Assembly: GCA_020532085.1 (NCBI GenBank)
Contig: JAJBAV010000024.1
Location: 1 to 44,977, forward strand
Direction of reading: 5' to 3'
DNA: 44,977 nt
DNA from: Candidatus Cloacimonadota bacterium
GTDB taxonomy: Bacteria > Cloacimonadota > Cloacimonadia > Cloacimonadales > Cloacimonadaceae
The notes beneath the pieces were generated by a model. It saw nothing but the letters and a program-made list of their open reading frames with translations, searched no databases and was not told the origin of the DNA. Numbering within the stretch: position 1 is the stretch's first letter; each line of letters starts with the position of its first letter. This document shows, piece by piece, positions 3,178 to 43,669 of the stretch. The position numbers were made by a program, and so were the translations under genes.

Positions 3178-3831
3178 TCAGTTGGGCCAGGCGTGGGCCC
3201 CTATGAGATCCACAAAGCGAACATGCTCAATGGTTGTTATCTTGATATCACCGTCACGTTTATCCGCCACCTGTAACTCCTGCACCTCCTGGCCGCCGAC
3301 CGGCATGATCAGACGTCCGGGATCTGCCAGCTGATCGATGAGGGGTGCGGGTATGCGGGGCCCGCCGGCTGTCACGATGATCCGGTCAAAGGGGGCTTCC
3401 GAAGGCCAGCCCTCGGTGCCGTCGTCAATACGCGAGACGATGTTGTGATAGCGAAGCCGGTCAAAGATCTTGCGGGCACGACTGACCAGGGCGTCCAGGC
3501 GCTCCACGGTATAGACCTTCTGGCAGAGCCGGGAGAGGATGGCGGCATGGTAACCGGAGCCGGTACCGATTTCGAGAATCTTCTCAGACCCGGTAAGCTG
3601 CAGGGCCATGGTCATCAGGGCAACGATATACGGCTGGGAGATGGTCTGACCGCTGCCGATGGGTAGGGGAAAGTCGCTGTACGCCTGTGACTGAATGGCA
3701 TCTTCAACAAAAAGATGCCGGGGGACTGTACGCATGGCGTCAAGGACACGCTGATCGGTTATGCCCCGGCGAACCAGTTGCTCCTCGATCATCCGCTCTC
3801 TGTTGATGTCAAAGATGGTGAGCGGGTTCAC
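3178..3831 (-). CDS. pcm: Protein-L-isoaspartate O-methyltransferase
   Basis: This enzyme uses S-adenosylmethionine to methylate isoaspartyl residues in aged proteins, starting their repair. The chosen GTG start at 3831 gives 217 residues, the usual size for bacterial Pcm. It shares four bases (GTGA) with the stop of the upstream lipoprotein gene, indicating translational coupling. A longer frame from 3867 would read back inside that gene and is unlikely. Visible motifs are the substrate-site loop PIGSGQTISQPYIVALM and the SAM-binding motif ILEIGTGSGYHAAIL, then DDGTEGWP and RIIVTAGGPRIP. It is likely co-transcribed with the lipoprotein gene. Confidence 0.95.
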   Translation of the reverse strand: MNPLTIFDINRERMIEEQLVRRGITDQRVLDAMRTVPRHLFVEDAIQSQAYSDFPLPIGSGQTISQPYIVALMTMALQLTGSEKILEIGTGSGYHAAILSRLCQKVYTVERLDALVSRARKIFDRLRYHNIVSRIDDGTEGWPSEAPFDRIIVTAGGPRIPAPLIDQLADPGRLIMPVGGQEVQELQVADKRDGDIKITTIEHVRFVDLIGAHAWPN

Positions 3832-21142: not shown

Positions 21143-21686
21143 GATGGACGAAGGCAAGTTGATTTTCGCTGTGGTCATGGAGCATCCGCCGCTCCACACC
21201 TTCAGAAGGATCGTCGTCCGTTGTTCGGGCGAGCGGAAGGTCACGTCGTTCTCTGACCTGGACCTGTGCATGATGTTGCACAGCTGACCTTTTACGAGAG
21301 TCTTCGGGATACAGGCCCTTTCGATTGGGGTAATTGCCGGCAAAGGGGGCACTGCCGACCAGATCCGTTTCGCCTGGTTTATTCAGGATCCTGAAACCGG
21401 CAAGGAACTCTCGTTTGTCACCAACGCAGGCCATCTGGATGCACAGACCATTTCCGAGCTGTACAAAGAGCGTTGGCGGATCGAATTCTTTTTCAAAGGG
21501 ATAAGGGGCACCCTCAAAATTAAAACTTTTCCTGGAATAGTATACAATGCGGTGATGACTCAAACCTGGATCGCCCTGAGTGTTTACTTACTCTTTGCTT
21601 TTTTGAAATTCAAGACCAAACTGGGCGCATTACTGCAGCAGATGCTGCGTTTGCTCCAACTTAATCAGCCCTTTCAAAGCGCCTGA
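21143..21686 (+). pseudogene. Degenerate IS4-family transposase (internal deletion and frameshift)
   Basis: Remains of a DDE transposase. An N-terminal piece starts MDEGKLIFAVVMEHPPLHTF and continues RRIVVRCSGERKVTSFSDLDLCMM, like the start of IS4-group transposases. It hits a stop at 21285-21287, while another frame continues QLTFYESLRDTG, the next conserved block, so a frameshift lies near 21280. The frame from about 21330 then jumps to the C-terminal half: FAWFIQDPETGKELSFVTN, the catalytic-glutamate region ISELYKERWRIEFFFKGIRG, and KIKTFPGIVYNAVMTQTWIA, ending at 21686. The middle (catalytic Asp region) is missing. It marks a mobile-element scar between the N-ATPase operon and the defence island. 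Confidence 0.8.
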
Positions 21687-21812
21687 TCAGAATCTGTCAT
21701 TTACTTCTATGCAGTTTTTGTTATTGCAAAATCTATGAGCCAGCAGTGGTTTCACATACAAAAAATTACAGGTAAACATACAGGTAAACAGTTAGTAACT
21801 ATTCAGCATCTT

Positions 21813-22314: not shown

Positions 22315-22818
22315 TCAGTTCCTTAATGCCTGTTTTTTCGCCAGTTCCTTGGATCGATCCACAGCTTCCACTTTCGTATGGTGGTTATTGGATGCCCTTG
22401 ATGCTTCCTTTTTGCGTTCGCAGACCGCTGCGAGTATTCGATCAATACACGCATCAAAATCCTCTTCGATTTCATGCTGCCACAGGCGAATCACCGTCCA
22501 GCCCATCTGTCCTAATTTACGATGGTTTGCGGCGTCCCGTTCCCGGTTCTTGTTTATCTTCTTTTTCCAAAAATCAGAGACCTTTTCCTCCCAGGAAGAG
22601 AATCCGTATCCGTGCCAAAAATCACCGTCCACGAACACGGCGATTCGGGCCTTTCTGAAAACAACGTCCGGTTTGCCTGGTAAATCTTTGACGTGCTTGC
22701 GGAACCTCAATCCTCTTCTGTGCAGAGCGGAGCGTACCCGCATCTCAAGACCGGTATCCTTGCTTTTGATGCGGGACATGCAGTAGCTGCGTTGTTCGGG
22801 GGTCAGATTGTCCGGCAT
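22315..22818 (-). CDS. vsr: Very short patch repair endonuclease Vsr
   Basis: Nicks DNA at T:G mismatches that arise by deamination of 5-methylcytosine, protecting a Dcm-type methylation site. The 167-residue protein has LTPEQRSYCMSRIKSKDTGLEMRVRSALH at the front and the core LPGKPDVVF...VFVDGDFWHG. Counting from the ATG, the catalytic metal-binding aspartate falls at residue 51 and the histidine at 69, the same positions as in E. coli Vsr. After that comes NRERDAANHRKLGQMGWTVIRLWQHEIE, the family's C-terminal block. It follows dcm by one short gene, so it probably repairs that methyltransferase's sites. The last 25 residues are an unrelated charged tail. Confidence 0.95.
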   Translation of the reverse strand: MPDNLTPEQRSYCMSRIKSKDTGLEMRVRSALHRRGLRFRKHVKDLPGKPDVVFRKARIAVFVDGDFWHGYGFSSWEEKVSDFWKKKINKNRERDAANHRKLGQMGWTVIRLWQHEIEEDFDACIDRILAAVCERKKEASRASNNHHTKVEAVDRSKELAKKQALRN

Positions 22819-22823
22819 CAGTC

Positions 22824-23099
22824 TTACCCCTGATACAAACTGAAAACCCTGGCCATTTCCTTTCGTCCGGGCAAATGGAGCTTCGGCGGTACAGTCGTCA
22901 GAACGTTGAAATTTTGTGGCGTGCTCGGGCAGATCGTTTTAAAATCGCACTTTTTGCATTTTTCAGGATGCGGCCGCATTGGGAAATCCGAGCCGAGAAT
23001 GCCCGTGACCGCCCATTCGATGTTTGCGAGTGCTGCATCCATCGCCGCGTTGTATTGTTGCGGCGTCAACTCGTTTTTCAAGACCTGGTCGATATTCAT
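22824..23099 (-). CDS. Stand-alone C-terminal piece of a PD-(D/E)XK/Fe-S nuclease-like protein
   Basis: A 91-residue product. The segment DFPMRPHPEKCKKCDFKTICP (centre near residue 48) has the C-x2-C-x4-C pattern that closes the iron-sulfur cluster in Cas4/AddB-like PD-(D/E)XK domains, preceded by a helix (QYNAAMDAALANIEWAVTGILG) like the one just before that pattern in such proteins. The catalytic core and the distant first cysteine are absent. Yet it is not an obvious wreck: its ATG overlaps the dcm stop (ATGA) and vsr begins 5 bp after it, so it appears to be translated as a coupled small protein. Function is unknown; it could be a remnant or a small partner protein. Confidence 0.55.
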   Translation of the reverse strand: MNIDQVLKNELTPQQYNAAMDAALANIEWAVTGILGSDFPMRPHPEKCKKCDFKTICPSTPQNFNVLTTVPPKLHLPGRKEMARVFSLYQG

Positions 23100-24202
23100 A
23101 TGAATTCAGCTCCCCTTTTTGATGGCCAGGTCCCGGTGCTGTTCCGCAGTGCTCGTTTGATGCTTTTGCCGTGTGCCGCGATGAACGGCGGCGGCAGGGC
23201 GTTGCCGATCATCAAAGCCACGGCTGACTTGTTGTTAGTGGCCGGAAACTTGTATCGGCGGGGAAAACCCTGTAGAAGAGCCGCCTCGCGCATGGTGATG
23301 GCCCGATCCTCCTCCGGGTGTAGGAACCGCCCCTTTGAGGGATTGAAGCATCCACTGGTGATCGTCGGGGCCACATCCTTCCAAGCCATGCGCCCGTAGA
23401 CATCCTTGAACCCGTTGCATCGCTTGTGACACTCGAGCTGATACTCATCCGGAAGGTCTCTGCGGCTACCACCGTCCTTGGGAATGCGTTGGATGATTTC
23501 CATGATCTTAGGTGTCCTATTTTCCGGCATATCGTGTACTGCATCGCCACTTTCTCCTGCTCTTGGTAATCCGCCTATGGCGTCCTCCACCGTTTTCATT
23601 CTGCCGGCGTTTTCAACGAAAGGTATTTCCATGCCCACCCCAGCCAAATAGATCAATCTACGCCTTCGTTGCGGCACACCAAAGTCAGCTGCATTCAGGA
23701 CGCGGTGGTCGCCCAGATAGCCAAGTTTCTTTAGCTTTTTGCAAAACACCGCGAATCGCTCATCGTTGCGGAGCCCAGGCACGTTTTCCATCATAACGGT
23801 TCGGGGACGGAGCGCTTCCACATATCGCTGGAATTCCAGTAGGAGATCGTTGCGTGGGTCTTCCACACTGACCGCTCCGTTCAGGGTCCGCATTCTGGAG
23901 AAACCCTGACACGGCGGGCATCCCGCCAGGAGATCAAGGCCGCCTTTCTTCAACCCGAGCGTGTCGAGCAGTTCCTGCGGATCAAGTTCTCTGATGTCCC
24001 TTTCCCATAGTGTGACATCACGATGGTTCGCCTTGTAGGTCGTGACGGACAGCGGGTCGATATCCACCGCGCCTAAGACCCTGAACCCGGCTTTTTTTAG
24101 CCCTACCGTCAGGCCGCCGCAACCGCAGAACAGGTCAACGGCGGTGGGCTTTCCGCCATCGTTGAAAATAGGACAAAGATTCTGTTTCGTTTTGCCTCTC
24201 AT
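23096..24202 (-). CDS. dcm: DNA (cytosine-5-)-methyltransferase
   Basis: Transfers a methyl group from SAM to C5 of cytosine in a specific site. The 368-residue protein has motif I DLFCGCGGLTVGLKKAGF (residues 23-40), motif IV GCPPCQGFS with catalytic Cys98, motif VI MMENVPGL (137-144) and motif VIII near VPQRRRRLIYLAG, then a target-recognition part and motif X GNALPPPFIAAHG at the end. The site cannot be read from sequence. No restriction endonuclease of normal size is next to it. It starts 162 bp after brxL and overlaps the next gene, so it opens a dcm-stub-vsr unit that may be read from the BREX operon or separately. Confidence 0.95.
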   Translation of the reverse strand: MRGKTKQNLCPIFNDGGKPTAVDLFCGCGGLTVGLKKAGFRVLGAVDIDPLSVTTYKANHRDVTLWERDIRELDPQELLDTLGLKKGGLDLLAGCPPCQGFSRMRTLNGAVSVEDPRNDLLLEFQRYVEALRPRTVMMENVPGLRNDERFAVFCKKLKKLGYLGDHRVLNAADFGVPQRRRRLIYLAGVGMEIPFVENAGRMKTVEDAIGGLPRAGESGDAVHDMPENRTPKIMEIIQRIPKDGGSRRDLPDEYQLECHKRCNGFKDVYGRMAWKDVAPTITSGCFNPSKGRFLHPEEDRAITMREAALLQGFPRRYKFPATNNKSAVALMIGNALPPPFIAAHGKSIKRALRNSTGTWPSKRGAEFI

Positions 24203-24364: not shown

Positions 24365-26395
24365 TTACATCGCCAATGTCTTGAGCACCGCGCGGTCCAC
24401 GTCGCCGTAGAAGACCACGTCCAGACGTTCGATCACATCTTCCGGCAATCCGGCAAATTGCGTTTTGTTGGAAACGGGGACCAAGGCGCGGTAAGCGCCT
24501 GATTCCAGCGCAAGCTGCAAAGGTTCAGTAATCGAGGCCGGACCCTTGATATTTCCCTGAATGGTCAGGTCACCGAGAACCACCGTCCCGGCCTGCACGT
24601 GGCGGTTACGGACCACGGAAATGATGGCGGTGAAAAAGGCCACGCCGCAAGGACAATCGATGCGGCCGCCCGAGAGGTCCACCGCTTCGGCATAGATGTC
24701 CTTCTGCGCCAGCAACTGTGTCAGACCGAGTTTTTCCTTGACGTTCTGCAGATAACTGAACGCCCGGTTGAGGGATTCTTTCAGTGACTTCTCAAGGCCG
24801 GTCGGGGTCCGGAGCTTGCCTGTGCCCGCCGTCAAGGTGATCTCAAGCCGGAACAAAGCAACCTTGGCTTCAGCATCCACCGCGGCTGTGTAAACCGTGC
24901 CCGGAGGCAGTGGGTCCTGCGAAATGACTCCGGCCCCTCCTTGTTCGGCAACACCCACGGAGCGTTCAGTGTCGTCGGCGAGATCGATATAAGAAAAGCT
25001 GGTCTTGTAAAATTCAAAAGAGCCGCGTTTCTTGAGCTGCTCTTTCACCCGGCGGCGCCCCTCCAGGGCCAGCTCAACATACTCCGTGAGTTCCTCCTTC
25101 GTCCAGTCTCCACCCGGGTGGAGGATTTTGAGAAGGCCGCTCACCGTTTTTTTGGCTGCTGTGGCGTCTCTGCCTTCAACATGCGACCCGAAACGGAAAA
25201 TTCGCTCGGCCTCGTCGAAGCGGTTTTGTTTTCTGAGCACCCGAAACGCTTCGGCCAGATAATCGGTGACGAAGCCGTAACGGGTCGTGAGTATGTCCCG
25301 AGAGCTTTTGGGAACCTCCCAGCCGGGCAGATAAAAATGTATCCGGTCAAGCAGCGCCAAGTCAAATTCCCGGGGAAGCGGTTGGAAAAGGTCCATGGCG
25401 GAGTTTTGGACCAGGCTTTCCACCGGCTGATTGAGGTTGCCGATGAATACCAGGGAAGCATCAGCCAACACCTGTGTGATACCGCGGCTGAAACGACCGT
25501 TGGCCATGTAGTCCTTCATAATTTGGACCGCGTCAGGGTCGGTGATCTTCATACCGCCGACTTCGTCGAAGGCCACGACATCCCAATGCCCAACCAGCCC
25601 GACTTGACGTCGGGCGTTATTGTAAAACAGATTCGCCGTGCTTGCCTTGCCGCCCGAAAGCAGCATGCAGTACGGTGACATCTCGCTGAAAGCATAGGAT
25701 TTACCGGTACCGCGGGGACCGAGTTCGATGAAGTTATAGTTTTTTTCGACAAATGGGATAAGCCGGGTGAGCAACAGCATCTTCAATCTGTGCTCCATCC
25801 TCATCGGCTCAAGGCCCACACTCCTGAGGAGGAGGTCGATCCACTCGTCCCTTGTCATCCCGCCCCTGCCTTCCAGGTACTCTTCCAGATCAAAACGGGC
25901 GAGCTGGATTGGTTTCAGATCGACGATATGGAAGGGGCTGTCCTTTTTGCCCTCTTCAGTCAATCTGAACTCAACATCAATGACGGCCCAGATGCCGCCC
26001 TCAAGCAGTCGTTCGTATCGTCGGTAAAACTCCTCGGGGATGTGTATCTTGGCGTAGCCGAAATGGTCCATTGAGGCCCAGTACTTGTTTTCGCTTGGAA
26101 GGAAACGGACTTCAACGCGGTCGATGAACCGATGTCTGCCTTTCTGCTCAACCATGGACTGGGCCTTGTTCGCCTCGTCATGTCGGAAATAATTCGCGGT
26201 CAAGGTCTCTTTAACGGCATCGACACCGATGCGAATCTCCTCGTTGTTGTCCGAAGCGCAGTATTTGCCCAAGAGATACTCAAGCACATAGGATGGCACG
26301 TTTTCGCCGCCTTTAATCTGGTGCAAAAGGTCCTTGCGCACCACCTTCCCAGCGAAAATACGGCTCACTTTCTGATCTAGAAGGTCAATTTCCAT
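24365..26395 (-). CDS. brxL: BREX protein BrxL (AAA+ with Lon-like C-terminal domain)
   Basis: BrxL is the ring-forming DNA-binding ATPase of type I BREX, needed for phage restriction. The ATG at 26395 is chosen (AGGTGG 7 bases ahead) and gives 676 residues beginning MEIDLLDQKVSRIFAGKVVRKD. The family block VPSYVLEYLLGKYCAS follows. Walker A is GPRGTGKSYAF near residue 228 and Walker B is VVAFDEVGG. The Lon-type C-terminal domain is present (GVAFFTAIISVVRNRHVQAGTVVLGDLTIQG), but where Lon has PSAG this protein has PCG, and no lysine of the usual GG-K-E-K segment is seen, so proteolysis is doubtful. It closes the brx set, after an ATPase-DUF4276 cassette. Confidence 0.93.
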   Translation of the reverse strand: MEIDLLDQKVSRIFAGKVVRKDLLHQIKGGENVPSYVLEYLLGKYCASDNNEEIRIGVDAVKETLTANYFRHDEANKAQSMVEQKGRHRFIDRVEVRFLPSENKYWASMDHFGYAKIHIPEEFYRRYERLLEGGIWAVIDVEFRLTEEGKKDSPFHIVDLKPIQLARFDLEEYLEGRGGMTRDEWIDLLLRSVGLEPMRMEHRLKMLLLTRLIPFVEKNYNFIELGPRGTGKSYAFSEMSPYCMLLSGGKASTANLFYNNARRQVGLVGHWDVVAFDEVGGMKITDPDAVQIMKDYMANGRFSRGITQVLADASLVFIGNLNQPVESLVQNSAMDLFQPLPREFDLALLDRIHFYLPGWEVPKSSRDILTTRYGFVTDYLAEAFRVLRKQNRFDEAERIFRFGSHVEGRDATAAKKTVSGLLKILHPGGDWTKEELTEYVELALEGRRRVKEQLKKRGSFEFYKTSFSYIDLADDTERSVGVAEQGGAGVISQDPLPPGTVYTAAVDAEAKVALFRLEITLTAGTGKLRTPTGLEKSLKESLNRAFSYLQNVKEKLGLTQLLAQKDIYAEAVDLSGGRIDCPCGVAFFTAIISVVRNRHVQAGTVVLGDLTIQGNIKGPASITEPLQLALESGAYRALVPVSNKTQFAGLPEDVIERLDVVFYGDVDRAVLKTLAM

Positions 26396-26485
26396 ATTCC
26401 ACCTGTAGAGCTGTTGCAGGATTAAAAGAGGCATCCTTAAGTTTGCGGTTCTTCAGGCTGTAGATACCTACCCACTATTGTTGCG

Positions 26486-27127
26486 CTACCGACGCGTCTC
26501 ACAAACAAGTCGGTCCAAATCCCTCATCAGCTTTGCGTAGGATGGAGAGCGACGCTGTACACCGGCAGCAAGTGACAACGCGCCGGTAAGCTGAAGCTGA
26601 TGAGTCGTTTCTTCATATGGACAAGATAAAAGATCCGCAATAAGTCTCTTGCATCCGGCATGCGCTTCAGGCTCCAACTCACCTGGAATCCTATTCCCAG
26701 CGGGCAAAAGCTGAGCCTGACGAATGGAAGTAAGACTCGCCAGGAACCAAGCTTCATACTCCCGATTGGCGACTACCACGGCTAGCGGAATATGCGAAGC
26801 GACGGCACGTGCTCGAGCCAAAAGTACAGGCCCTAATCCATTATCCCGCCCTCTTTTTAGACATTCATCATCAGCGTCGACAATAACTAGAATCGCGTCA
26901 GGACGGATCCTAACGGCGGCTTCAATATAATGCTCAATACCGATGTGGCGTTGACTGTCGTAGGCGGCCTTCAATTTCCCGCAACCTTTTGCATTAACGG
27001 CTAAATCCGTTACTTCAAAATATTTGTCAAACCTACGATGGTAAAGCCATCGCCTGATGAGACAGGGGACCGCCCTTTCTTCTCCAAATCCTTCGACAAC
27101 GGGTACGATCTTTTTTTTTCTTCTCAT
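26486..27127 (-). CDS. DUF4276-like TOPRIM-fold partner protein (cassette 2)
   Basis: A 213-residue protein with two motifs of a TOPRIM metal site: an N-terminal glutamate in VVEGFGEERAVP (residues 10-21) and LVIVDADDE (near 80), the D-x-D element. The middle has VVVANREYEAWFLASL, a stretch that recurs as YDFEAWLLPY in the other cassette. I relate it to DUF4276 from this pattern. TOPRIM proteins paired with ABC-type ATPases include the OLD nucleases, Gabija GajA and the AriA-AriB pair of PARIS, so a nuclease effector is a reasonable guess. The ATG overlaps the upstream ATPase stop by ATGA. The gene is AT-richer than brxC or pglZ. Confidence 0.65.
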   Translation of the reverse strand: MRRKKKIVPVVEGFGEERAVPCLIRRWLYHRRFDKYFEVTDLAVNAKGCGKLKAAYDSQRHIGIEHYIEAAVRIRPDAILVIVDADDECLKRGRDNGLGPVLLARARAVASHIPLAVVVANREYEAWFLASLTSIRQAQLLPAGNRIPGELEPEAHAGCKRLIADLLSCPYEETTHQLQLTGALSLAAGVQRRSPSYAKLMRDLDRLVCETRR

Positions 27128-28314
27128 TTTAATCCACCGTTCAGAGCGAACAGGTCCTCTTTAAAAATCTCCGGTTGCGGATCAGGCCAAAGGGTATTGG
27201 ATCTCAACATCCAACCTACTGTATCAATCGGATTCACTGAATCTTGGGTTTCTTTGCTGAGACGGTATATTCGGCTTTCACCGTCCCGCCATTCGATCAC
27301 CCGGACCCGTTCGCCGGTCACCGACGGATGGCTCAGGACTTCCGGGGAGTGGGATGTTAAAACCACCCGCATTCTGTTGGAACTCGCCAGCGCCGCATCC
27401 AACAACACCGCCAGTGCGCCCGGATGCACGGAATTCTCAATTTCGTCGATAAGAACAACAGTCGGAAACGGATTCTGTTTTAAGGATAACAGGACGCCCA
27501 AGCTTCTCAAGGTGCCTTGGGAAACCTGACTTGCATCGAACGTTATTTTTCCGTGCCCCTGTCTTTGAACAAACTGGACAACCCTCCGACCCAACAAAGC
27601 ATGAGCGTGGATATCGTCAATAGCATCAGTGATTATTCCTATCCGCTCATTGATCCATCGATGAGCATCTGAACCCTCCACTGCTTTCAGAACATCACCT
27701 GCATTAGCGCCATCGCGATCCAGAGTCGAACGCTCCCTGATCTCCTGCGCCGTAGCCATGTGAGCGGGGGAAAGTTCGTATGCACGCAAATTGCGGATGG
27801 TATTCAATACGAGTTCCCAAAGACTGTCCGCACGGGCGATCAACGGCAAAACAAGATTCCCGGCAGGGGGCGATACATCAGACTTCCGCAAGGAGGTAAA
27901 AGTTTGGTCTCTTCGTTCGAAAGAGGTTTCTTTTGATGAAATTAAACACTCTCGTATGTGTGAGGATGATGTATCCTTTATTCCTTGAACCTCAAAACCA
28001 TATACCACCTGCGCCTGCCGTCCGCCGGGAAACATGATACGGAAGACGACAGCAAGACCCATCGGCGATTTTCTTCCCTTGTCGGATTTAACCCGTTGGA
28101 CCTTATGCAATCCCCCTCTGCGGTCCAAGGCATTTTCCAGGCTGTCACTCACCGCTTCCCGAAGCAGGTCAACGGCGTCAAGAAGACTTGACTTGCCAGC
28201 CCCATTCCGCCCCACCAGGAAAGTCAGATCGGAAAGCGACAGACGAGCGTTTTCGAACGCCCTAAATCTCTTCAATCTAATCTCTTCAACGATAATTTGA
28301 AGCGAACCAGTCAT
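27124..28314 (-). CDS. AAA/ABC-type ATPase (AAA_21-like, OLD-related; cassette 2)
   Basis: A 396-residue ATPase of the RecF/SMC-like group. It begins IIVEEIRLKRFRAFENARLSL, followed by Walker A VGRNGAGKSSLLDAV (near residue 34). The signature-like region is ASQVSQGTLRSLGVLLSL, Walker B with the His-Pro motif is VVLIDEIENSVHPGAL, and the switch is LTSHSPEVL. This layout is that of ATPases that pair with TOPRIM or HNH nucleases in phage defence. It is coupled by ATGA to the DUF4276 gene that follows. An IS630 copy lies between it and pglZ upstream, so it may depend on its own promoter or on read-through from the IS. Confidence 0.8.
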   Translation of the reverse strand: MTGSLQIIVEEIRLKRFRAFENARLSLSDLTFLVGRNGAGKSSLLDAVDLLREAVSDSLENALDRRGGLHKVQRVKSDKGRKSPMGLAVVFRIMFPGGRQAQVVYGFEVQGIKDTSSSHIRECLISSKETSFERRDQTFTSLRKSDVSPPAGNLVLPLIARADSLWELVLNTIRNLRAYELSPAHMATAQEIRERSTLDRDGANAGDVLKAVEGSDAHRWINERIGIITDAIDDIHAHALLGRRVVQFVQRQGHGKITFDASQVSQGTLRSLGVLLSLKQNPFPTVVLIDEIENSVHPGALAVLLDAALASSNRMRVVLTSHSPEVLSHPSVTGERVRVIEWRDGESRIYRLSKETQDSVNPIDTVGWMLRSNTLWPDPQPEIFKEDLFALNGGLK

Positions 28315-28379: not shown

Positions 28380-29366
28380 TTAATCAGTACATAAATCACC
28401 GAACATTTCGGTGTATTTGATGATAGGATGGCGAAAGAATCCCTTTATCTTGTCCGTGAGCTGTTGGAGTGATTGCATGATGGTGATCACCCGTTCGTGG
28501 AATTCTTTTTTACCGCCATGCGACATGCGGCCCATGTTATGGTTTTTCAAATAATTCCAAACAAGTTCATCGGGGTTCAGCTCGGGGGAATAGGGCGGCA
28601 AGTGGAAGAGTCTCAATTTACCTTTTGTATTTCGAACAAACTCTCGAACTTTCTCCGATCGATGAACGGAATGATTGTCGACAATCAAAAAGACAGGAGC
28701 CGTGGCATTGGCAATCAGTCGGCCGAGAAATTCACAAAACACTTCGGAGTTCACCGTGTTCTCCGTGGCCATAAACCGCAACTCCCCTTTGGGGCTGATC
28801 GCGGAGAGCACATTCACCTTGAAACGGGCGCCCGTCGTGGCAACCACCGGTGTCTTCCCCTTAGGAGCCCAGGTGGTTCCGGAATGATAGTCGGACCGAA
28901 CAGAGGCCTCGTCTCCAAAATAGATAGCAGCACCTTCCTGCTTGGCCAGTTTTTTGATCGCAGGAAAATCCTTGGCCATCCAGTCGACGACAAGCGTCTG
29001 ATCCTGTTGGTAGGCACGGTGAACAGGACGTTGCGGGCTCAAGCCAAGTTTGTGCAGCAATCGGCCAACAGACACATCGCTCAATCGAACACTGAACTCC
29101 CGACTGATCAGTTCCCGAACCATGCCCCGTGTCCAAAGCGCAAAGGGAAATTTCAATTGTCGAGGGTCTCTGCCGACAACCAAGCGATAGATTTTCTGCA
29201 AATCCTTGCCCGCAAGCTTCGAAGGACGGCCGGTGGCCTTGCTGCTCCTCAGCGCCTCGACTCCTCCTTCTCGATACTTGGCAATCCATTCGTAGATGCG
29301 AGGCCGAGTAAGACCCAACGCCTTGATGACAACTTCGGGACTTTCCCCTGCCTCGACTCGCTTCAC
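28380..29366 (-). CDS. IS630-family transposase
   Basis: DDE transposase that cuts and pastes the element at TA sites. N-terminal helix-turn-helix region: VIKALGLTRPRIYEWIAKYREGG. Catalytic core: GDEASVRSDY (first Asp region), FLIVDNHSVHRSEKV (second), LPPYSPELNPDELVWNYLK (third, with Glu). From the GTG at 29366 there are 328 residues. Family-like sequence (GRKINRKALEEIRIRA) continues upstream in the same frame without an ATG, GTG or TTG, so the true start is unusual or has been lost. The stop TAA is completed by the TA target copy plus one flanking base. All three catalytic residues appear intact. Confidence 0.88.
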   Translation of the reverse strand: MKRVEAGESPEVVIKALGLTRPRIYEWIAKYREGGVEALRSSKATGRPSKLAGKDLQKIYRLVVGRDPRQLKFPFALWTRGMVRELISREFSVRLSDVSVGRLLHKLGLSPQRPVHRAYQQDQTLVVDWMAKDFPAIKKLAKQEGAAIYFGDEASVRSDYHSGTTWAPKGKTPVVATTGARFKVNVLSAISPKGELRFMATENTVNSEVFCEFLGRLIANATAPVFLIVDNHSVHRSEKVREFVRNTKGKLRLFHLPPYSPELNPDELVWNYLKNHNMGRMSHGGKKEFHERVITIMQSLQQLTDKIKGFFRHPIIKYTEMFGDLCTD

Positions 29367-32086: not shown

Positions 32087-32701
32087 TCATGGGATCACCG
32101 GTTCACCGCACGCCGAAAGAATCGTATTGATGAATGCCTTAAGTTCCTGACATTGGTTGATCGCGATTGACAAATCGTTCTCTCTGAGAATCCGCCCGGC
32201 GTCACGAGGTTTTATGTAGCTGTCCCGGCATTTGCCGATCTCAAAGATTTCCTTGATTCGGTATGCAGGTGGGTTTTGATGGTTCACGGTTTCCGGATTG
32301 CCGCTGGGGGCACCTCTGTTATGCTTCGCCAATTTTTGGATCGTCGTCCAGTAAGGCAGCAGCCAAGCCTCAAAATCATATTGGGCGGCATGGGGATGAA
32401 ACCTCGGCTCTTTTCCCACCCATTGCCTCATTTTATTCTTGGCGTCTTGCGCATCGATGAAATCGGGAGGATTTGTGCCGGTATACACATCGGTCAGTGC
32501 AATCACATGATCAGCGGGTTTACCCCCACCCAAAAGGTTTTCCACGACTCGTCTTAATTTGTCCTCTTTGGGGATGCGGCCGTCGTAAGGAAAAACATCC
32601 AGCTTGGGTGTCTTGGTGGCCAGACGATTTTTCAAAAAATCCTGTAGGTACGGAAGAAACGCCTTTTCGGTTTTGCCTTCGACGATGATGGATATTTTCA
32701 T
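32087..32701 (-). CDS. DUF4276-family TOPRIM-like partner protein (cassette 1)
   Basis: A 204-residue protein from the ATG at 32701, which overlaps the stop of the preceding ATPase gene (ATGA); a longer frame adds ten residues from inside that gene. It begins MKISIIVEGKTEKAFLPYL, the typical DUF4276 opening with the TOPRIM glutamate, then VIALTDVYTGTNPPDF, where the D-x-D element reads DVY, and HAAQYDFEAWLLPYW and YIKPRDAGRIL. Compared with the cassette 2 protein it keeps the fold landmarks but has a different acidic motif. Likely works with the ATPase encoded just ahead. AT-richer than pglX ends and pglZ. Confidence 0.8.
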   Translation of the reverse strand: MKISIIVEGKTEKAFLPYLQDFLKNRLATKTPKLDVFPYDGRIPKEDKLRRVVENLLGGGKPADHVIALTDVYTGTNPPDFIDAQDAKNKMRQWVGKEPRFHPHAAQYDFEAWLLPYWTTIQKLAKHNRGAPSGNPETVNHQNPPAYRIKEIFEIGKCRDSYIKPRDAGRILRENDLSIAINQCQELKAFINTILSACGEPVIP

Positions 32702-33846
32702 GACCGACCTCCCATCCGGCCCATCCGCCATACTTCGTCAAGGCTGTATTCAGCCAACCATCGGTCAATATCCAATGAGTCGGCCCATGTCGCCGATGCA
32801 CATCCGTTGTCGTCCAGATCCATCACCACCACTTCTTCCGGTTTTAAGAAGCGTATGAACCTATCCGAATGTGTGGCGACAACCAATTGCGTTCGTTGTG
32901 CGGCCTCGCGCATAAGATCCGCCAGCAGGCCCAGCAATTCCGGATGCAAACTGACCTCGGGTTCGTCGATCATGGTAATGGTTGAAAGATGAGGGCTTTG
33001 CAGTAATGCTGTGAGCCATAGAAATCGAAGAGTTCCTTCAGACAGTTCATTCATATAGATCGGCTTGCTGAACTTTTTGTCTTTCCAGGTCATGGCCAAC
33101 ATTCCGGCCGCCACCGGTGGAAAATTCAGCTCTTCGAAATCCGGAAAAGCCGTTTTCAAAGCGTCCAGAACAGCCTCATATCGATCACGATCTCCCTCAC
33201 GCAGGTAATATAAATACGGAATCAAGTCCGAACCATCATGTCCGGGCAAGGTGGCTGGTTTCATGGGTTGCGGCATTTTCACCGGGGCACGGGGGCCTAC
33301 ATCCAAGACGTGATACTGGGTGGCGGTTGCCAAGATGCGTCTTAGTTCCTCAGGTTGCCGAAACATTTTCGGCACCTGGGAGAGTGAAGTTTCCAAGGGG
33401 TCGTGTTCCCAATCGGGACGAACGAGGTGATTTGCCTCTGTTTCGTAGTACTTGATGTCGCCGTACGACGAATCGATGTGACGGAACGGGTCACTAAAAC
33501 CCGGCCGCTTCTGACACAACAATTCTCTGGAGATGGAATAGCCGGTTCCCTTTGGATCAAGCCGAAGATCATATTCAAGAGGCTCATGTCCAGGCACAGT
33601 CATATCAACGAGTAATGAAAGGTTTTCACTTTTACCGCGGGTCAAAAGATTTGCAATACCGCCGAATTTCGACAAAATGCTGTTCAAATTGCCTGATGCC
33701 GAAGCGGAGAGTATGGAAAAAGCATCTAGAAAAGAAGTCTTGCCGACGCCGTTTGCACCGATCAGAACCATAAAGGGCCGCACCTGTAGATCTATGTTGA
33801 GCAGCCGCCTGAAACCATTTATTTTGATCCGGTTGATCTTATTCAT
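32698..33846 (-). CDS. AAA/ABC-type ATPase (AAA_21-like; cassette 1)
   Basis: A 382-residue RecF-like ATPase: NRIKINGFRRLLNIDLQV, Walker A IGANGVGKTSFLDAF (near residue 33), signature-like MNELSEGTLRFLWLTALL, Walker B TMIDEPEVSLHPELLGLL, and VVATHSDRFIRFL. A strong AGGAGGAA stands 7 bases before the ATG, 15 bp after pglX, so it is well translated independently. Its stop overlaps the DUF4276 gene. With that partner it forms the first of two such cassettes in the island; the two ATPases share architecture but little obvious sequence beyond motifs. Confidence 0.82.
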   Translation of the reverse strand: MNKINRIKINGFRRLLNIDLQVRPFMVLIGANGVGKTSFLDAFSILSASASGNLNSILSKFGGIANLLTRGKSENLSLLVDMTVPGHEPLEYDLRLDPKGTGYSISRELLCQKRPGFSDPFRHIDSSYGDIKYYETEANHLVRPDWEHDPLETSLSQVPKMFRQPEELRRILATATQYHVLDVGPRAPVKMPQPMKPATLPGHDGSDLIPYLYYLREGDRDRYEAVLDALKTAFPDFEELNFPPVAAGMLAMTWKDKKFSKPIYMNELSEGTLRFLWLTALLQSPHLSTITMIDEPEVSLHPELLGLLADLMREAAQRTQLVVATHSDRFIRFLKPEEVVVMDLDDNGCASATWADSLDIDRWLAEYSLDEVWRMGRMGGRS

Positions 33847-42334: not shown

Positions 42335-43118
42335 CGATCAACTCCTCAATGGATTTGATAACCCAGGTGAAATGCACGACCGAGCCGGCGCGCTGAACAA
42401 TCACCCCACGATGTTCACCGATCCCGTCCAGCCGCTCCACCACTTCGGACGGCGTCATTCCGAACAGTCCCCAGTCTGAATGGTTACAAAGGGAGGAATC
42501 CGTCACGCCCGCTTCATTGAGTTCCCGGGCCAAGATCGCAGCCCCTTCATCCGACATGCGGTAGTTGACGATCTCCCTGCGGCCCCGGACGACTTCATGA
42601 AGGAATCCGACATCTCGAAGGAGACCGAGAACAGAGCGGGCGATGCGCACCGACACCTTCTCCGACCATTGGTTGTCCAAGCGGCCGTCGTAATGTGCTT
42701 CCGACAGAAAGGAGAGCATCGGGTCCGTGTCCATGACGGGTCTTCCCCTGCGGGCGGCGGGCCAGTATTCACGTATCGTGAAGTCATAGACCAGGGGGTC
42801 CTGACGTGCCGTAAACACGAACAGGAGCTCGGTGAAAACACGCCCCGACAGACCTGATGCAAGCACCTTTTGAAGAATCCGTGCGGGCTTGTCACTCGGT
42901 CTCAAGAACCGCGGTATAAATACTCTTCTTACGATATCGCGCGTTCTGTAGGCGGTGGAGTTGCCGAGCAGCCCTTCAGTCTGGACCCTGCGCGTGAAAT
43001 CATCGAGCGGTTCATCCGGACGCCATTGTTCGAGGAGGCGCCGTGTCTCTTCGATCATCCCGGCGCCCTTGCTGATCGCGGTCGAGTATTTCCGTTGTGC
43101 TTCTTTATTCATGGTCAC
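42318..43118 (-). CDS. brxA: BREX protein BrxA (DUF1819)
   Basis: DNA-binding accessory protein of the BREX core. The 266-residue product begins with YSTAISKGAGMIEETRRLLEQW, the typical family opening, and continues with ILQKVLASGLSGRVFTELLFVFTARQDPLVYDFTIREYWPA and a winged-helix-like region LDNQWSEKVSVRIARSVLGLLRDVGFL. The start could be the GTG at 43118, overlapping the brxE stop as GTGA, or the ATG two codons later (43112). DUF1819 proteins are in several BREX types. Confidence 0.92.
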   Translation of the reverse strand: MTMNKEAQRKYSTAISKGAGMIEETRRLLEQWRPDEPLDDFTRRVQTEGLLGNSTAYRTRDIVRRVFIPRFLRPSDKPARILQKVLASGLSGRVFTELLFVFTARQDPLVYDFTIREYWPAARRGRPVMDTDPMLSFLSEAHYDGRLDNQWSEKVSVRIARSVLGLLRDVGFLHEVVRGRREIVNYRMSDEGAAILARELNEAGVTDSSLCNHSDWGLFGMTPSEVVERLDGIGEHRGVIVQRAGSVVHFTWVIKSIEELIDVLAR

Positions 43119-43669
43119 ACTCGGCTTCCGTCTATTTCGGTGGTGAAATAGGGGAAACAGGGTTCATTCCTCGTAAACGCCGTATGGTAAACAGCGGCGG
43201 TTTTTCTAACACCCGCCGTCGTCATAATGTCCTTGTCAGTGCCGATCTTTCTTGCACCCGGCGAGGCGTCCGTTTTTTTGCCGTCGTACATCGATGCGAG
43301 CAATTTCAGCAATTCCTCCGGCTGTCCCATGGCGGTGCGCAAGGTCGGGAAAAAATCCTCTGCCGGGTCCGGAGGCATTCGATGGAGTTCAGTTTCCAAA
43401 GCTTCGGGCAGCCTGAAGAGGTGGTACACACCAACACGTCCGACGGCACTGTCATGAGCGTCGCCTGCGGCTTTACCTGCGGCGTGGATTGCTGCGTGAA
43501 AGGTCGTCCTTGGATACAGACGCTTCAAATAACTCAGCCCCGTTTCATTCATGAATTCGGTTCTCCACCATGCAGGAGAGACCGACTCACCGAGGGAGAG
43601 AACAACCGCACGCAGACGGAGGACAAGAAAGGGCTGTAGCGGCTTCCGCATTTCGTTCTTAGTCATCAT
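43115..43669 (-). CDS. BrxE-like BREX protein
   Basis: A 184-residue protein with the pattern I associate with BrxE: LRLRAVVLSLGE, AWWRTEFMNETGLSYLKRLYPRT, an Ala-rich helix (FHAAIHAAGKAAGDAHD) and VYHLFRLPEALETEL. BrxE was described as the first gene of type 6 BREX, directly before brxA, exactly the position here. Its presence beside brxL, a type I gene, makes the system a mixture. The family call rests on remembered motif order and needs a profile search. ATG pair at 43669/43666 overlaps the regulator stop. Confidence 0.65.
   Translation of the reverse strand: MMTKNEMRKPLQPFLVLRLRAVVLSLGESVSPAWWRTEFMNETGLSYLKRLYPRTTFHAAIHAAGKAAGDAHDSAVGRVGVYHLFRLPEALETELHRMPPDPAEDFFPTLRTAMGQPEELLKLLASMYDGKKTDASPGARKIGTDKDIMTTAGVRKTAAVYHTAFTRNEPCFPYFTTEIDGSRV

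What the first reader, a model, noticed from the sequence alone, without database searches (positions are those of the whole stretch)
22824..23099. Coupled 91-residue PD-(D/E)XK/Fe-S stub between dcm and vsr
Seen: a C-x2-C-x4-C segment resembling the end of Cas4/AddB-type nucleases, with no catalytic core, in a frame that overlaps dcm (ATGA) and is 5 bp from vsr. Inference: either the remains of a cognate nuclease or a deliberately small protein, for example a metal-binding partner of Dcm or Vsr. The neat spacing argues against a random fragment.
Basis: partly seen in the sequence, partly recalled or inferred. Interest (0 to 1): 0.55.

Follow-up and report, generated by a model that had tools for sequence, protein, structure and literature searches.

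The report
Deletion remnant of a BREX-linked helicase-nuclease
The small gene is what is left of a roughly 970-residue DNA helicase-nuclease after a single in-frame deletion removed its middle, so its tidy position between two neighbouring genes is inherited and does not show a purpose-built mini-protein.

Summary
The 91-codon frame is real: it overlaps dcm by ATGA and ends 5 bp before vsr. The cysteine motif is C-x2-C-x5-C, not x4. All 14 homologues found in genome contigs are C-terminal ends of long proteins, one of them cut by a contig edge. Eleven are complete 967-976-aa UvrD-type helicases with a C-terminal PD-(D/E)XK iron-staple nuclease and intact motifs, mostly in the order dcm - helicase-nuclease - vsr. 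The window ORF is their first ~20 residues fused in frame to their last ~71. In relatives L006 and L007 a 10-bp direct repeat sits at exactly these two points, 2637 bp (879 codons) apart. The deletion removes all helicase motifs, the nuclease core and the first of four staple cysteines. A second, 95-bp deletion fuses vsr to the downstream DUF2188 gene, so the operon tail is eroding. No stand-alone 91-aa homologue was found. One counter-hint: a clade of related bacteria keeps a catalytically dead version with all four cysteines next to vsr, so a non-catalytic role of this segment cannot be excluded.

The parts
22824..23099 (-). 91-codon remnant ORF of a UvrD/PD-(D/E)XK helicase-nuclease: N-terminal ~20 codons joined in frame to the C-terminal ~71 codons
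23040..23099 (-). N-terminal part (MNIDQVLKNELTPQQYNAAM), homologous to the first 20 residues of the full-length protein; the boundary is uncertain by a few bases because of the microhomology
23034..23049 (-). Deletion junction (codons 17-22, AAC GCG GCG ATG GAT GCA); the two corresponding places in L006 and L007 share the 10-bp repeat GGCGGTGGAT, 2637 bp apart
22827..23039 (-). C-terminal part with DFPMRPHPxKC and C-x2-C-x5-C: three of the four iron-staple cysteines; the first cysteine lay in the deleted part
23096..24202 (-). dcm, C5-cytosine methyltransferase (PF00145), intact upstream partner; its stop overlaps the remnant's ATG
22315..22818 (-). vsr (PF03852); its C-terminal ~35 codons are fused to the middle of the former downstream DUF2188 gene by a 95-bp deletion
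24365..26434 (-). brxL, BREX Lon-like protein, upstream of dcm here and in 6 of 14 relatives

Best explanation
The ORF is a deletion remnant (pseudogene) of a BREX-linked helicase-nuclease. The ancestral operon read brxL - dcm - helicase-nuclease (~970 aa; SF1/UvrD motor plus C-terminal PD-(D/E)XK iron-staple nuclease) - vsr - DUF2188. A recombination or slippage event between two short direct repeats, one at codon ~18 and one at codon ~897, removed 879 codons. Both repeats lie in the same reading frame, so the ends fused in frame and kept the dcm overlap and the vsr distance. Shown: the homology of both ends, the full-length gene at the same place in relatives, the repeats in L006 and L007, and the loss of every catalytic motif and one staple cysteine. 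Inferred: that the deletion happened between these repeats in this lineage, that the product is without enzyme activity and without an iron-staple fold, and that what remains matters at most for translational coupling of dcm to vsr. Function of the intact gene (inferred from its domains and neighbours): a motor-nuclease that degrades DNA lacking the Dcm mark, with Vsr repairing T:G mismatches that arise from 5-methylcytosine.
For: All 14 genome contigs homologues lie at the C-terminus of long frames: 11 complete 967-976-aa proteins, 1 cut by a contig edge (L015), 2 long but catalytically dead (L017, L018). Both ends of the window ORF align to these proteins and nothing lies between. Same neighbours: dcm upstream on the same strand in 12 of 14, vsr directly downstream in 10 of 14, brxL upstream in 6 of 14. 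Pfam on 4 of the full-length proteins: UvrD-helicase, UvrD_C, PDDEXK_1. The 10-bp repeat and 2637-bp spacing equal the size difference exactly (972 minus 2 extra C-terminal residues minus 91 = 879 codons). The missing middle is not elsewhere in the genome at high identity: only ordinary UvrD helicases at 33%. A second short-repeat deletion hits the next gene.
Against: The fused frame has no stop or frameshift, and its C-terminal 70 codons still show pN/pS 0.13-0.19 against relatives, as a functional sequence would; but this reflects mostly divergence before the deletion. Substitutions at otherwise invariant sites are not significantly raised (2 of 54). Six genomes of another family carry the gene, and at least 5 of them have lost catalysis but keep the cysteine segment, which hints at a non-catalytic role for it. 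Only one genome carries the deletion, so an assembly error or a strain mixture cannot be formally excluded; a 10-bp repeat is shorter than the k-mers that assemblers usually use, which makes a misjoin unlikely (recalled, not tested).
Confidence: 0.93

Rival explanations
1. The 91-aa protein is made and kept by selection as a small docking or metal-binding partner of Dcm or Vsr, derived from the helicase-nuclease by the deletion.
For: The frame is open, start overlap and spacing are intact, and all three C-terminal cysteines and DFPMRPHPEKC are unchanged. In a separate clade the C-terminal segment is the best conserved part of a catalytically dead homologue (55% in L017 against 12-20% in the nuclease core) and the gene stays next to vsr.
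Against: No other small version was found in 14 genome-contig loci or in scans of 147, 124 and 386 (overlapping) genomes. The first staple cysteine is lost; in Cas4 Sso0001 replacing any one of the four cysteines gave insoluble protein (PMC3466216, passages). The fold prediction is weak: mean pLDDT 72.8, about 60 around the cysteines. The dead homologues keep four cysteines and most of the helicase body, not just this tail.
Confidence: 0.05
2. The junction is an assembly artefact or a minority strain variant; the organism carries the full-length gene.
For: The genome is a 98-contig draft at 99.18% completeness and 2.02% contamination; the deletion is seen in one genome only.
Against: The deleted segment is nowhere else in the 2.81-Mb assembly. 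The join lies inside a 45-kb contig, and the shared repeat is only about 10 bp.
Confidence: 0.04
3. A free-standing Cas4- or AddB-type protein fragment unrelated to this operon landed here by chance.
For: Weak hits to Cas4 and AddB-like profiles.
Against: Both ends match one specific gene at the same syntenic place.
Confidence: 0.01

Closest known systems
UvrD/PD-(D/E)XK helicase-nuclease between dcm and vsr in BREX islands (L005-L009, L013)
   Same: Same place, same start and end sequence (77-85% identity over residues 19-91 for L005-L013), same neighbours
   Different: Full length, 972-976 aa, with SF1 motor, nuclease motifs and four cysteines; the window copy lacks 879 codons
Iron-staple nucleases (AddB, Cas4, DNA2, Bad)
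   Same: C-terminal three-cysteine element and PDDEXK_1 C-terminal end
   Different: No nuclease core, and the first of the four cysteines is missing; four cysteines across the domain are the defining feature (PMC3466216 and PMC7430649, passages)
Catalytically dead homologues next to vsr (L017, L018, L036-L038)
   Same: Same C-terminal segment, and vsr directly downstream
   Different: 1100-1700-residue frames that keep the helicase body and all four cysteines; motifs lost by substitution, not by one deletion

Membership tests
BREX-linked UvrD/PD-(D/E)XK helicase-nuclease (this operon's gene) | Homologous N- and C-terminus at the place between dcm and vsr | tested here: met
BREX-linked UvrD/PD-(D/E)XK helicase-nuclease (this operon's gene) | SF1 helicase motifs I-VI | tested here: not met
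   All absent in the window ORF; present in 11 of 11 complete non-degenerate homologues
Iron-staple PD-(D/E)XK nuclease | Nuclease core motifs (RQVEA, GSIDL, DFKT, QxxxY) | tested here: not met
Iron-staple PD-(D/E)XK nuclease | Four cysteines, one upstream of the core and three in C-x2-C-xn-C | tested here: not met
   Three of four present; YLxCP cysteine deleted
Iron-staple PD-(D/E)XK nuclease | Binds a 4Fe-4S cluster | not testable with these tools
   Needs purified protein
Stand-alone small protein family | Conserved homologues of similar length in other genomes | tested here: not met
   0 of 14 loci; none; none among viral contigs candidates
Pseudogene by internal deletion | Both ends of a longer gene, middle missing, short repeat at the breakpoints in intact relatives | tested here: met
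Pseudogene by internal deletion | Relaxed constraint after the deletion | tested here: inconclusive
   Longer tip branch for the C-terminal part (0.19-0.26 against 0.07 brxL, 0.15 dcm, 0.03 vsr) but counts at invariant sites not significant

The most novel reading that the evidence does not exclude
The C-terminal three-cysteine tail of this helicase-nuclease is a portable docking element for Dcm or Vsr that outlives the enzyme: in one clade the enzyme is dead but the tail and all cysteines are kept, and in this genome a deletion has pared the gene down to its two ends with the tail intact, still translated with dcm and vsr.
Probability: 0.05. Interest if true: 0.6.

Novelty: new member of a known kind. 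Interest (0 to 1): 0.2.

Why it matters
It removes a false lead: the small ORF should not be annotated as a Cas4-like or metal-binding partner of Dcm or Vsr. It also points to two things worth separate study: a recurrent dcm - iron-staple helicase-nuclease - vsr module attached to BREX operons across several phyla, and a clade in which that helicase-nuclease has lost all catalytic motifs yet is kept beside vsr.

Tried and rejected
Stand-alone homologues: sought in genome contigs, in 147 and 386 relatives and 124 genomes of the phylum (these sets overlap), in plasmids and phages (only weak hits, best E 0.4 and 0.5, to an ATP-dependent helicase and to phage Cas4-like exonucleases) and in viral contigs (3 candidate stretches, none a relative). 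No small version found. The G031 homologue (open frame 209 aa) looked like a possible second short form; it is cut by the contig edge and its nuclease motifs are intact, so it was rejected. Weak hits G132 and G141, G117 and G123 and G269 were not followed up.

Relaxed selection on the remnant: tested by pN/pS, branch lengths and unique substitutions. Branch lengths suggest some excess; the counts do not reach significance (p 0.05-0.62). Reported as inconclusive. pN/pS between the dead homologues L017 and L018 was 0.58 against 0.39 for the active pair L014/L016; with third-position G+C of 0.82-0.97 this is unreliable.

Literature: searches; passages read of PMC12458937, PMC7988955, PMC3466216, PMC10609329 and PMC7430649. 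None of the passages seen describes a BREX-linked dcm - helicase-nuclease - vsr module; this is a statement about those searches and passages only. One search (deletions between short repeats) gave listings only and no paper from it was read.

Not included in the motif table: L039 (G423), whose anchor motif was not found by the script; L015 for the helicase part (contig edge).

Full report
What is there. The frame at 22824-23099 (minus strand) is real, 91 aa, with an ATG that overlaps the dcm stop and a TAA 5 bp before the vsr ATG. The cysteine motif is C-x2-C-x5-C at residues 48, 51 and 57, not C-x2-C-x4-C. Profile searches reach only the last 43 positions of PDDEXK_1 (20.3 bits, cut-off 22) and the C-terminal ends of Cas4 models.

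What it is. A scan of genome contigs returned 14 loci that encode a relative of the ORF. In none is it a small protein. Eleven (L005-L014, L016) are complete frames of 967-976 aa. The four checked against Pfam (L007, L008, L013, L016) carry UvrD-helicase, UvrD_C and PDDEXK_1. L015 is cut by a contig edge. L017 and L018 are longer, degenerate homologues. The first ~20 residues of the window ORF match the N-terminus of these proteins and residues ~20-91 match the C-terminus; nothing in between is present.

How it arose. In L006 and L007 the ten bases GGCGGTGGAT occur at locus positions 3363 and 6000, 2637 bp apart, a multiple of three. These are exactly the places where the window sequence switches from the N-terminal to the C-terminal part (AAC GCG GCG ATG GAT GCA GCA). 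2637 bp is 879 codons, the size difference between L007 and the window ORF after allowing for two extra residues at the L007 C-terminus. In L005, L008, L009, L010 and L013 the longest shared string in the same two regions was a different one; in L009 the nine bases GCGGTGGAT are nevertheless present at both places. Deletion between short direct repeats is the simplest account; because both copies are in the same frame, the fusion is in frame without any selection for it.

Why the spacing is neat. In relatives the helicase-nuclease starts within or a few bases after the end of dcm and ends at or overlapping the vsr start. An internal deletion leaves both borders as they were. dcm lies upstream on the same strand in 12 of 14 loci (not L015, L016), vsr directly downstream in 10 of 14 (not L006, L014, L015, L016), and brxL upstream of dcm in 6 of 14 (L005-L009, L013). 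In those six genomes PglZ lies at coordinates just beyond the locus on the brxL side (that it is the same contig is certain only for the single-chromosome record L006 and inferred from coordinates for the others).

What is lost. All SF1 helicase motifs, the nuclease motifs and the YLxCP cysteine lie in the deleted part. Four cysteines that span the whole domain are what holds an iron-staple nuclease together; single replacements in Cas4 Sso0001 and in Bad gave insoluble or labile protein (PMC3466216 and PMC7430649, passages read). A structure prediction of the remnant gives mean pLDDT 72.8, with one helix running through the junction and about 60 around the cysteines. The missing part is not elsewhere in the genome: the full-length L007 protein finds only the remnant and ordinary UvrD-type genes at 33% identity.

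The neighbourhood is eroding too. Relative to L007-L009, a 95-bp deletion fuses the end of vsr to the middle of the next gene (DUF2188), whose own 3' end is also gone. An IS630-type transposase gene (DDE_3) sits between pglZ and an AAA/DUF4276 pair. The core BREX genes have long open frames: BrxC and PglX score above the NCBIfam cut-offs; PglZ matches BREX PglZ models only below their cut-offs; BrxE scores above.

Is the remnant still constrained? The 70 C-terminal codons have pN/pS of 0.13-0.19 against eight relatives, inside or slightly above the range among the relatives themselves (0.05-0.17). A longer protein branch for the window in this segment than in brxL, dcm and vsr would fit relaxed constraint, but counts at otherwise invariant positions (2 of 54) are not significant. 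The deletion looks recent, and no conclusion on selection can be drawn.

Evidence that could support a function of the tail. In a family that includes the genomes of L017 and L018, 6 of 37 genomes hold the gene. In the five read for motifs (L017, L018, L036-L038) Walker A has lost its lysine, DEYQD has become EGFQD or AGFQD, and the nuclease core is gone, yet the YLxCP cysteine and the C-terminal three-cysteine segment are present in all five, and vsr follows directly. In L017 the last 72 residues are the best conserved segment (55% identity to L007 against 12-20% in the nuclease core; L018 45% against 22-25%, though parts of the L018 helicase body are equally or better conserved). This suggests a non-catalytic role for the protein in that clade. 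It does not show that the tail alone works, since those proteins keep the helicase body and all four cysteines.

Verdict. An ordinary deletion remnant of an interesting gene.

Noticed in passing
L017 2272-6228, L018 2899-6195, L036 1935-5930; L037 and L038 (reverse complement): A clade of catalytically dead homologues of the helicase-nuclease (helicase motifs I and II and the nuclease core lost) that keep all four iron-staple cysteines and sit directly before vsr.
   Followed up: partly
L005-L009, L013: Recurrent module brxL - dcm - iron-staple UvrD helicase-nuclease - vsr (vsr absent in L006) behind BREX genes in distant phyla; not found in the papers searched.
   Followed up: partly
22315-22400: A 95-bp deletion fuses the vsr C-terminus to the middle of a DUF2188 gene; a near-repeat GAAGAGAA(A/G)GC flanks it in L008.
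   Followed up: yes
26486-28314 and 32087-33846: Two AAA-ATPase/DUF4276-type pairs in one BREX island: the first matches PADLOC HEC-01A/B; the second has a similar AAA ATPase (MAD3-like) next to a 214-aa protein without a NCBIfam hit, called similar by eye.
   Followed up: no
28380-29366: IS630-type transposase gene inside the BREX operon between pglZ and the HEC-01 pair.
   Followed up: no
43115-43669: BrxE family gene at the head of an operon whose PglX is of BREX-1 type and which has brxL, an unusual mix to my recollection.
   Followed up: no
21340-21690: Fragment that reads like the end of an IS4-type transposase between the ATP synthase genes and the island; recognised by eye, not searched.
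   Followed up: no
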